A stretch of 64,000 bases of DNA from an uncultured Phycisphaerales bacterium (GTDB lineage: Bacteria; Planctomycetota; Phycisphaerae; Phycisphaerales; SM1A02). The stretch is from assembly GCA_949373145.1 (NCBI GenBank), contig CASICI010000025.1, positions 1-64,000 of the forward strand, given 5' to 3'. The position numbers and the translations under genes are program-made. The number at the start of each line of letters is the position of its first letter. Position 1 is the stretch's first letter. Below the pieces are notes generated by a model, which was not told the origin of the DNA, did no database searches, and saw only the letters and a program-made list of their open reading frames with translations. Shown piece after piece: positions 40,305 to 42,992 of the stretch.

Positions 40305-41622
40305 TCATTCCGGGATCCTGCGGCCATGCGGGTCGGTGGTCGGCGTACCGGTCTCTCTCGCCAGCTGTTCGAGCATCTCCTCATCGGTGACATGCTCGAG
40401 TCTCATTGCAGTCTCATGGACGTGGTCCGGCGCAAGACCGGCGCTCTTGGCGAGCCATGCTTCCCAGAGTCTGTGCGATCGGACCAGAGTGGCTGCGCGT
40501 CGTCGACCTGCATCGGTCAGCGTGATCAGGTCTTCTCGTCTCATGAAGTCACCCTGACTCAGCAGGTGTCGAAGGCTCCATGCGATTTCGAATCTCGAGA
40601 CCCGGCGAGCAGTCGTCAGATCGTGGGTGAGCACTCGAGCCGAGCTCTGGCCGCCACGTTCCTCCAGGCGCCAGGCGAGCGCAAGCAGATCCTCCGTCGT
40701 CGTTTGAAAACGAAAACGCCAGCGTCGGACGCTTCTGGGCACCACGCCATGGGTTGGATTGATGAGGATGCCAACGAAGAGCAGGCAACCACCGGTGACG
40801 GCGATCATGCCTGAAGTCGGGACCGATCCGTACCCGATGAGATGGGGAAGTTCGACCGCTCCAAGGTGCCCCAGGACCGCGGACGTCAGCCCCAGGAATG
40901 ACGCAAGCCACAGCATGCTGGTCAGGTTCGTCGCGAAGAGGCGTGCACAGACCGCCGGAACGATGATCATCGCGACCACGATGATGCTGCCGACCGCCTC
41001 GAATGATGCCACCGTGGTCACCGCCGTCATGCCCATCAAGAGGTGGTGCATGAGATCCGGGCGCATCCCCTGTGCCCGCGCCTGTTCCGGATCGAATGCC
41101 GCGATTCGAAACGCCTTGAACCAGACGATCAGAATGAACAGATCGATCAGAAGCACGATCGCCACCATCAGGAACGCTCGGGGCAACTGCACGCCGCCCA
41201 GCAGAGGAAGCGTGACGAGGTCGAGTGGTGCGAATTCAAGAGCACCGTACAGAACGCAACTGGGATCAAGGTCCACGGAGTCCGCGCCTTGGACGATCAG
41301 CAGAAGCCCCACCGCGAAGAGGGTTGTGAAGACCACGCCCATCGCGGCGCCTTCATCCACGCGTCCGAAACGTTTCAGCCACTGGGAGAAGAATGCGGTG
41401 AGGAACCCTGCGACGATCGCTCCCGCGAACATGATTCCATTCGATCGAGAGCCTGTGAGAAGAAAGCCGATGGCAATGCCGGGGAGGACCGCATGGCTGA
41501 TGGCATCGCCCATGAGACTCATGCGTCGAAGCACCAGGAAACAACCCGGCAGGGCACAGGCCACCGCGCAGGTCGCCGCGATGACGATGATCCAGCCATC
41601 GAAGAAGAGGCTCCATTGCGTC
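40305..41622 (-). CDS. Metal (Mn/Zn/Fe) ABC transporter permease fused to a C-terminal DtxR-like domain (second permease)
   Basis: ABC-3 permease (CFLVLRRMSLMGDAISHAVLPGIAIGFLL) followed by wHTH and LTDAGRRRAATLVRSHRLWEAWLAKSAGLAPDHVHETAMRLEHVTDEEMLEQLARETGTPTTDPHGRRIPE, a DtxR metal-binding/dimerisation signature. Confidence 0.88.
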
Positions 41623-42992
41623 ATCACCGTCGTTCTCCCCGTTCGAGGGCGGACAGGCAGGATGATCGGGTGCGGGCTTGGAGGTATCGAACCCCGTTCG
41701 GTGTTCAATTCCTTTTCCAGTTCATCGAGCAGCTCGAGTGGAAGCAGGTGCTCGAGATCGTCGGCCCCACGGTCGACATGGTCTTCGTCGAAATCAGCCC
41801 GGCGCAGCAGATAGTGTTCCCAGAGTCGGTGGCGCCGCACGACTTCGACCGCGCGTCTTTCACCCGTGGGTGACAGACGTATCTCGGTCTCGGAAACGGT
41901 CTGGATGATCGTGAGCAGTCCTGCACGGTGAAGGCGTTGGCAGGTGTTCGAGTTCGCCCATCCTCCGCGTGCGGTGATCTCGGATTTGTGGCAGAAGTCC
42001 GAGCCGGAATGTTCGAGGCTTTCCCAGATCGCTCGAAGAGCATGTTCACGTTCCATGGATCGTGAACGCCGTCTCAGACGGAGCGCACGACGAAGCAACC
42101 CGCGTTGTCGGCCGAAGACGAGGCTCAAGAGAAAGAAGCCACCAAGTCCCAGGACCACCATCGCTCCGGCGGGCAGATCCGGGGCGAGTGCGCTTGAAAG
42201 GGTGCCGGCCCAGCCGCCAAGCCCGCCGATGACGCCTGCCGTGAGGAGCAGGTGGCCGGTCCTGTTGGTCCAGAATCTCGCGGCTGCCGGTGGGATCACG
42301 AGAACCGCGATCACGAGCACGAGACCGACCGCCTGGAGACCCACCACGACGACTGCGATCACCCATCGCCATGAGCAGCAGATCGTAGGCTCCGGTCTTC
42401 ATCCCTCGCCCACGAGCGTAGTTCTGATCGAAGCAGATCAGTCTCAACTCCTTGAAGAAGACGATGCATGTCGTGATCGTGAGCACCGAAGTGACGGGCC
42501 GATCATCATGGCGTCACGCACCAGCATGGACGCGGTCTTTCCGTAGATGAACGTCTCCAGTCCAGCCGCACTCGCGGTGGTCTCCTGTTGTGCCAGTCCG
42601 AGAAGCGCGGCACCCGCCCCGAAGAAGCGTGCTCAAGACCACGCCGAGTGCGGAGGTCCTCTGGAAAGTCTTCCTGAACTCGTCAACCAGTGGACAGCGA
42701 TGATTCCAATGATGCCCGAGCACGTCGCGCCGATCAGCAACACGCCATGGGATTTCACACCGAAGCCCATCGCCGATGCCACAAGAAAGGCAAGCACGAT
42801 TCCGGGCAGGGTGGCGTGGCTGAGTGCGTCGCCAAGAAGCGCACGGCGTCTCAGGAGCATGAACGAACCCACGACTCCACCGGCCATTCCCAGAGCGCTG
42901 ACACCGAGAACCACCACGCGGGTATTCCAGTTGGAGAGAAACAACAGATCAAGGAATGTCGTTTCAGTCGCGGGCATGAGCGCGCTCATCAT
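41620..42992 (-). CDS. Metal ABC transporter permease fused to a C-terminal DtxR-like domain (first permease), frameshifted several times between 42360 and 42660
   Basis: FMLLRRRALLGDALSHATLPGIVLAFL; C-terminal LSPTGERRAVEVVRRHRLWEHYLLRRADFDEDHVDRGADDLEHLLPLELLDELEKEL; no stop before the next permease in the reading frame given. Confidence 0.78.

What the first reader, a model, noticed from the sequence alone, without database searches (positions are those of the whole stretch)
40305..42992. Two consecutive metal-ABC permeases, each carrying a C-terminal DtxR/MntR-like repressor domain
Seen: both permeases continue past their last TM into a winged-helix region and then a DtxR metal-binding/dimerisation module (RRHRLWEHYL…GADDLEHLL and RSHRLWEAWL…HETAMRLEHV…DPHGRRIP). 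Known: Chlamydia YtgCR is one permease fused to a DtxR-like repressor that is released by proteolysis. Inference: this locus may hold a duplicated membrane-tethered version, with divergent metal ligands (D/D versus H/M ahead of the conserved EH). The two tails could sense different metals or heterodimerise.
Basis: partly seen in the sequence, partly recalled or inferred. Interest (0 to 1): 0.85.

Follow-up and report, generated by a model that had tools for sequence, protein, structure and literature searches.

The report
Metal importer with two sensor tails
A marine planctomycete's manganese/iron importer has a metal-sensing domain taken from a gene repressor on each of its two membrane subunits; the sensors keep their metal-binding residues but have lost the conserved DNA-reading part, so they probably throttle the importer directly instead of controlling genes.

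Summary
Both ABC-3 permeases carry a C-terminal two-domain DtxR-fold tail, and in relatives the intact genes (454 + 439 aa, ATGA overlap) prove the fusion. In the window permease 1 is frame-shifted and runs into permease 2 as one 685-aa ORF, probably a sequence error. The double tail is an old, conserved design: 24 tailed pairs in 41 related genomes, and more across the phylum. The metal ligands are near-invariant and differ between the tails. In DtxR numbering, tail 1 has H10/H79/E83/D98/D102/E105/H106 and tail 2 has D10/H79/E83/H98/E or M102/E105/H106. The interpretation (a tethered repressor like Chlamydia YtgR) is not supported. None of 52 tails matches the DtxR DNA-binding Pfam model. Their recognition helix is 1.7-2.4 times more variable than their metal domain (0.9-1.0 in free-standing DtxR/MntR). 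A separate MntR heads the operon, and the operator class follows that regulator, not the tails. Best explanation (inferred, about 50%): the tails pair inside the heterodimeric transporter and shut it when cytoplasmic metal binds, like MetNI/ModBC trans-inhibition but with DtxR sensors on the permeases. New variant of a known kind.

The parts
45236..45272 (.). Operator of the operon: two TGTAGC-N4-GCTACA palindromes, starts 21 bp apart, overlapping the mntR start codon
   Evidence: Exact or 1-mismatch copies at 45236 and 45257; 0.00 expected by chance in the window; the only two in the 2.1 Mb genome; same class upstream of all 11 loci with an adjacent MntR
44821..45244 (-). Free-standing MntR-type repressor gene (frame-shifted near 44912-44937)
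   Evidence: PF01325 8e-8; tblastn to the intact relative in two frames; a relative's MntR is over the NCBIfam PRK11050 cut-off, 169 against 153 bits
43801..44750 (-). Solute-binding protein (ZnuA/PsaA-like), broken over three frames
   Evidence: PF01297 in two ORFs; tblastn in three frames
42989..43804 (-). ABC ATPase, intact, 271 aa
   Evidence: PF00005 3e-26; 91% identical to the relative
41628..42992 (-). Permease 1 (ABC-3, PsaC-like) with DtxR tail; frame-shifted, and the frame runs on into permease 2
   Evidence: intact homologues P0130 (453 aa) and L035 (454 aa)
41697..42068 (-). Tail 1: degenerate winged helix plus DtxR metal/dimerisation domain (PF02742 at 41703-41870). Ligands: H10 42042-42044, H79 41829-41831, E83 41817-41819, D98 41772-41774, D102 41760-41762, E105 41751-41753, H106 41748-41750
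40305..41624 (-). Permease 2 (ABC-3, PsaC-like) with DtxR tail, intact, 439 aa
   Evidence: AlphaFold pLDDT 87.5; PsaBC 7kyp is the best fold match
40305..40709 (-). Tail 2: degenerate winged helix plus DtxR metal/dimerisation domain (PF02742 at 40308-40517). Ligands: D10 40689-40691, H79 40473-40475, E83 40461-40463, H98 40416-40418, M102 40404-40406, E105 40395-40397, H106 40392-40394

Best explanation
The locus encodes a heterodimeric PsaBC/TroBCD-type Mn(II)/Fe(II) ABC importer (shown by homology). Both permeases end in a cytoplasmic DtxR-fold sensor that keeps its metal sites and dimerisation domain but not a conserved DNA-reading helix (shown by sequence and model). Inferred mechanism: the two sensors lie side by side at the cytoplasmic mouth and pair through their DtxR dimerisation helices. 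When the cytosolic metal level is high, metal binds the primary (10/102/105/106) and ancillary (79/83/98) sites and locks the pair. The rigid helix that continues from the last TM segment passes this on and holds the transporter inactive. This is feedback (trans-) inhibition of activity, layered on the transcriptional control of the same operon by the free-standing MntR at the TGTAGC-N4-GCTACA operator.
For: Ligand positions: 7 of 7 metal-capable in 93/104 tail-1 and 95/97 tail-2 non-redundant sequences, with H79, R80, W82, E83, A101, H106 invariant and E105 at least 99%. Recognition helix (DtxR 37-50) entropy over metal-domain entropy is 2.35 (tail 1) and 1.77 (tail 2), against 0.87 in MntR homologues and 1.04 in a free-standing control of equal divergence. 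PF01325: 0 of 52 tails at E<=0.01, while free-standing regulators in the same genomes match. Operator class A in 11/11 MntR loci, class B in 6/7 DtxR-type loci, including a locus without tails; in the window's genome the operator occurs nowhere else. Fold: permease = PsaBC, tail 2 = two-domain IdeR/DtxR/MntR at about 1.9 A over about 132 residues, with a near-continuous helical link; tail 1 likewise but weaker, with a short recognition helix. One-gene (presumably homodimeric) transporters in the phylum carry the tail too (L106-L110), so two sensors per transporter is the common state; both tails tend to be kept or lost together (23/2/1/4 genomes, Fisher p=0.003, uncorrected for kinship). Precedent: MetNI and ModABC are inhibited by substrate binding to dimerised cytoplasmic C-terminal domains (PMC10710835).
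Against: No direct evidence of inhibition, of tail-tail pairing or of metal binding. The winged-helix fold is kept, and helix 3 is still basic (+2.8 and +3.1 against +1.2 in MntR), which could mean non-specific DNA or membrane contact. Single-tail loci exist (G037, G018, G022), and in one branch permease 2 keeps only a winged helix without the metal domain (L100-L105), so a metal-domain heterodimer is not obligatory. Two double-tailed genomes (G008, G011) show no DtxR-type regulator with PF01325; there the tails might still regulate genes, or an unrelated repressor acts.
Confidence: 0.5

Rival explanations
1. YtgCR-like: the tails are metal-dependent repressors, tethered or released by proteolysis, that bind operators of this or other operons, perhaps as a heterodimer.
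For: Complete DtxR two-domain fold; basic helix 3; YtgR, a tail of the first permease in Chlamydia, binds DNA with Fe(II) and is cleaved (PMC5599777, PMC7755916); two double-tailed genomes lack another detectable DtxR regulator.
Against: Recognition helix not conserved; no PF01325 match (best of ten more tailed permeases E=0.038); operator follows the free-standing regulator; that operator occurs only here and overlaps mntR; no loose linker in the model.
Confidence: 0.17
2. The tails are intake-side metal acceptors or chaperones: they receive metal from the pore and hand it on, or buffer it, without gating the transporter.
For: Metal ligands are the most conserved feature; each tail sits at the cytoplasmic end of its permease; two sites per tail with different ligand sets.
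Against: Conservation also covers non-ligand positions of the dimerisation domain (R80, W82, A101, and L116 in tail 2), and a complete winged-helix fold is retained, which a simple acceptor does not need.
Confidence: 0.13
3. Activation, not inhibition: metal binding to the tails (or loss of metal) switches the importer on, or the tails steer assembly of the permease 1/permease 2 heterodimer.
For: Cytosolic metal-binding domains activate several transporters such as YiiP (PMC10710835); tail identity is specific to each permease, as an assembly code would be.
Against: Activation of an importer by its own product is unusual; one-gene transporters keep the tail as well.
Confidence: 0.12
4. Artefact: the tails are separate regulator genes joined to the permeases by sequence errors.
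For: The window has several frameshifts in this operon, and permease 1 runs into permease 2 without a stop.
Against: Permease 2 and its tail are one intact ORF; thousands of independent homologues exist and nearly all listed ones have PF00950 plus PF02742 in one protein; relatives' genes are intact.
Confidence: 0.01

Closest known systems
Chlamydia YtgCR (permease-DtxR fusion in ytgABCD)
   Same: ABC-3 permease with a C-terminal DtxR-like domain holding conserved metal ligands, in an SBP-ATPase-permease-permease operon; fusions of this kind were reported from 11 phyla (PMC5599777)
   Different: In Chlamydia only the first permease (YtgC) is described as fused and the tail is the DNA-binding repressor; here both permeases are tailed, ligand sets differ, the DNA-reading part is not conserved, and a separate MntR has the operator
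DtxR/IdeR/MntR repressors (PF01325 + PF02742)
   Same: Two-domain fold; primary and ancillary metal-site positions occupied
   Different: No PF01325 match, variable recognition helix, attached to a permease, no SH3/FeoA domain in this family (a weak FeoA match in L110)
S. pneumoniae PsaBC / B. anthracis MntBC manganese importers
   Same: Best fold match of both permease domains (7kyp); the D-x3-H pair used for Mn in PsaBC (PMC11779740) is invariant here (D40/H44 and D54/H58)
   Different: PsaBC is a homodimer without a tail; this is a heterodimer with two sensor tails
MetNI C2 and ModC regulatory domains (trans-inhibited ABC importers)
   Same: Proposed working principle: substrate binding to dimerised cytoplasmic domains stops the importer (PMC10710835)
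   Different: There the domain is on the ATPase and has other folds; here it is on the permeases and is a DtxR repressor fold

Membership tests
ABC-3 metal importer permease (PsaBC/TroCD type) | PF00950 domain and PsaC-like fold | tested here: met
   PF00950 2.3e-60; 7kyp top fold match for both permeases
ABC-3 metal importer permease (PsaBC/TroCD type) | Transmembrane Mn-coordinating D-x3-H | tested here: met
   Invariant D40/H44 (permease 2) and D54/H58 (permease 1 homologues)
DtxR/MntR family | Metal-binding and dimerisation domain PF02742 | tested here: met
   51.5 and 82.1 bits over the 27-bit cut-off; present in all 52 tails
DtxR/MntR family | Metal ligands at the primary and ancillary sites | tested here: met
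   7/7 ligand-capable in 93/104 and 95/97 sequences; actual metal binding not tested
DtxR/MntR family | N-terminal DNA-binding winged helix PF01325 with conserved recognition helix | tested here: not met
   0 of 52 tails; entropy ratios 2.35 and 1.77 against 0.87-1.04; fold itself retained
YtgCR-type permease-repressor | Permease fused to a DtxR-like domain in the transporter operon | tested here: met
YtgCR-type permease-repressor | Tail binds the operon's own operator as a metal-dependent repressor | tested here: inconclusive
   Sequence evidence speaks against it; binding itself not testable here
YtgCR-type permease-repressor | Tail released by proteolysis | not testable with these tools
   Model shows a helical link of about 5 residues without a loose segment
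Trans-inhibited ABC importers | Substrate binding to a dimerised cytoplasmic domain inhibits transport | not testable with these tools
   Analogy only

The most novel reading that the evidence does not exclude
A heterodimeric Mn/Fe importer that measures cytoplasmic metal with a built-in pair of non-identical DtxR sensors, one per permease, and closes itself: a transcription factor's sensor recruited as the feedback valve of a transporter, with two ligand sets giving a two-threshold or two-metal (Mn and Fe) readout.
Probability: 0.4. Interest if true: 0.8.

Novelty: new variant of a known kind. Interest (0 to 1): 0.58.

Why it matters
Permease-DtxR fusions have been read as tethered repressors because of Chlamydia YtgR. 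In planctomycetes thousands of such proteins exist, both permeases often carry the sensor, and the sequences indicate the sensor has been cut loose from DNA. If so, feedback inhibition of Mn/Fe ABC importers by DtxR-type sensors is widespread and experimentally accessible, and the default reading of these fusions in genome annotation should change. It also gives a natural test of how DtxR ligand sets tune metal choice, since the two tails differ at key ligand positions throughout the main family.

Tried and rejected
Assembly artefact for the fusion: rejected by intact relatives; kept for the 685-aa double ORF. Tails as readers of the 45237-45271 palindromes: rejected on comparative grounds. 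Obligatory tail heterodimer: weakened by single-tail loci and by winged-helix-only tails. Independent origin of the two tails: not favoured; the tails group together (SH-aLRT 94.7, below the 95 mark) and each tail family is one group (95.9 and 83.9), but only 118 columns. Reading the metal from ligands (Mn against Fe): left open. Naming the organism: the only named close genome found is a Phycisphaerae MAG (SP135). YtgCR sequences of Chlamydia could not be fetched with the tools left, so the recognition-helix test was not run on the one proven fused repressor. Literature: no paper found on doubled tails or on DtxR-based inhibition of ABC importers; the 2023 review of transporter switching does not mention DtxR. 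Two tail-only PDB searches failed first on a wrong frame and were repeated. The control held only 12 sequences, because the domain trimming missed the rest.

Full report
WHAT IS THERE. The window lies in a 2.1 Mb planctomycete MAG (G000, 76% complete); the only named close genome found is a Phycisphaerae MAG. On the minus strand an operon runs MntR (45244 to about 44821), solute-binding protein (44750-43801), ATPase (43804-42989), permease 1 (42992 to about 41628) and permease 2 (41624-40305). Both permeases are ABC-3 proteins that continue past their last TM helix into a DtxR-like module. Permease 2 is intact. Permease 1 is frame-shifted out and back and lacks its stop, so its tail and permease 2 lie in one 685-aa ORF. 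SBP and MntR are frame-shifted too. Close homologues are intact and end in a stop (P0130, P0134, L035), so I take these as sequence errors, though decay of the locus in this population cannot be excluded without reads.

THE DOUBLE TAIL IS OLD AND COMMON. In G003 and most other relatives with adjacent genes, the operon is mntR (or a divergent DtxR)-SBP-ATPase-permease 1 (about 450 aa)-permease 2 (about 440 aa), typically with 4-base ATGA overlaps between the two permeases. Among 41 genomes, PF02742 marks 52 tails: 24 tailed pairs (including the window) and 4 single tails; other operons are tailless. A wider draw shows full-length tailed permease 2 in many families of the class and phylum. Database searches return at least 7630 and 5385 homologues, nearly all listed ones with PF00950 plus PF02742. 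Named ones come from Pirellulales, Tepidisphaeraceae, Novipirellula, Botrimarina, and also Kiritimatiellia, Bdellovibrionales and Alkalispirochaeta MAGs.

TWO DIFFERENT, CONSERVED SENSORS. Mapped on DtxR, tail 1 (104 non-redundant sequences) has H10 (90%; N 10%), H79, E83, D98, D102, E105 and H106; tail 2 (97) has D10 (99%), H79, E83, H98, E102 (72%) or M102 (23%; the window's clade), E105 and H106. All seven positions are metal-capable in 93/104 and 95/97. D102 in tail 1 matches the C102D form of DtxR, which is the best PDB hit. Each tail family forms one group on a tree of the domain, and the two group together (few columns, weak support).

THE DNA-READING PART IS NOT CONSERVED. AlphaFold models (pLDDT 87) show the full two-domain DtxR fold including helix-turn-helix and wing; Foldseek aligns tail 2 with two-domain IdeR/DtxR/MntR at about 1.9 A, and tail 1 with DtxR at about 3 A and weaker significance. 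But no tail matches PF01325 in 41 genomes, while the free-standing regulators do. Mean column entropy of the recognition helix divided by that of the metal domain is 2.35 and 1.77 in the tails, 0.87 in 55 MntR homologues, and 1.04 in 12 diverse free-standing regulators whose divergence (45.5% mean identity) equals that of the tails (46.5 and 42.2%); subsampling the tails to 12 gives 1.91-2.75 and 1.55-2.01. Helix 3 remains basic, so non-specific contacts are possible.

THE OPERATOR BELONGS TO THE SEPARATE REGULATOR. TGTAGC-N4-GCTACA occurs at 45236 and 45257, overlapping the mntR start, and nowhere else in the genome. All 11 loci with an adjacent MntR have it near the operon head. Six of seven loci with a DtxR-type divergent regulator have TTTTGA-N4-TCAAAA instead (two of them with 2 mismatches), including one without any tail. 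The tails are of the same two families in both groups. The operator is therefore most likely read by the free-standing protein.

MECHANISM. Shown: heterodimeric PsaBC-like importer by homology; sensor fold and ligand conservation; no conserved DNA reader; separate MntR with its operator; near-continuous helix between TM8 and the sensor in the model. Inferred: sensors pair inside the transporter, metal locks them, and the lock inhibits transport. The analogy is MetNI/ModABC, where substrate bound to dimerised C-terminal domains stops the importer (PMC10710835). One-gene transporters of the phylum also carry the tail, so two sensors per complex is the common state; both tails tend to be kept or lost together (23/2/1/4; Fisher p=0.003 without correction for kinship). 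Exceptions (single tails; winged-helix-only tails in L100-L105; L110 with a weak FeoA match) show that the arrangement is evolvable.

COMPARISON AND NOVELTY. Permease-DtxR fusion as such is known: Chlamydia YtgCR, with fusions reported in 11 phyla (PMC5599777). What I did not find described is the doubled form with two near-invariant, different ligand sets and a decayed DNA-reading helix beside a separate repressor. By the membership test the tails meet the metal-domain criteria of the DtxR family and fail its DNA-binding criterion; the locus meets the architecture of YtgCR but the comparative evidence speaks against its function. Hence a new variant of a known kind, of solid but not extreme interest, with a clear biochemical test.

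Noticed in passing
L100, L102-L105 (second permease of each operon): In another planctomycete branch permease 2 (about 360-410 aa) ends in a winged-helix domain alone, without the DtxR metal domain, while permease 1 has the whole tail: the reverse of what a metal sensor needs. Unexplained.
   Followed up: partly
L110:3592-5106(-): A one-gene permease carries Fe_dep_repr_C plus a weak FeoA match (E=0.0014, below the Pfam cut-off), that is, possibly a three-domain DtxR-type protein fused to a single (presumably homodimeric) permease.
   Followed up: partly
tail 2 position 102, window 40404-40406: The MntR-type ligand E is replaced by M in about 23% of non-redundant tail-2 sequences including the window's clade, at the position that distinguishes Mn from Fe sensors in this family (own knowledge); a possible natural switch of metal preference.
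   Followed up: partly
tail 1, DtxR positions 34-36: A tail-1-specific R-[SG]-W motif (R 90%, W 96%) sits at the turn before helix 3: a candidate protein-protein contact.
   Followed up: no
L044 (G011) and L022 (G008): Double-tailed operons in genomes without any detectable PF01325 DtxR-type regulator; neither operator class is found in L044 (the G008 contig was not scanned).
   Followed up: partly
L116 and L117 (G334): Permease 1 (with ATPase) and permease 2 lie about 3.5 Mb apart on one contig, both still tailed.
   Followed up: no
window 42370-45000: Frameshifts cluster in this operon while neighbouring genes (36276-39322, 46216-49060) are open: local sequence errors or beginning decay.
   Followed up: partly
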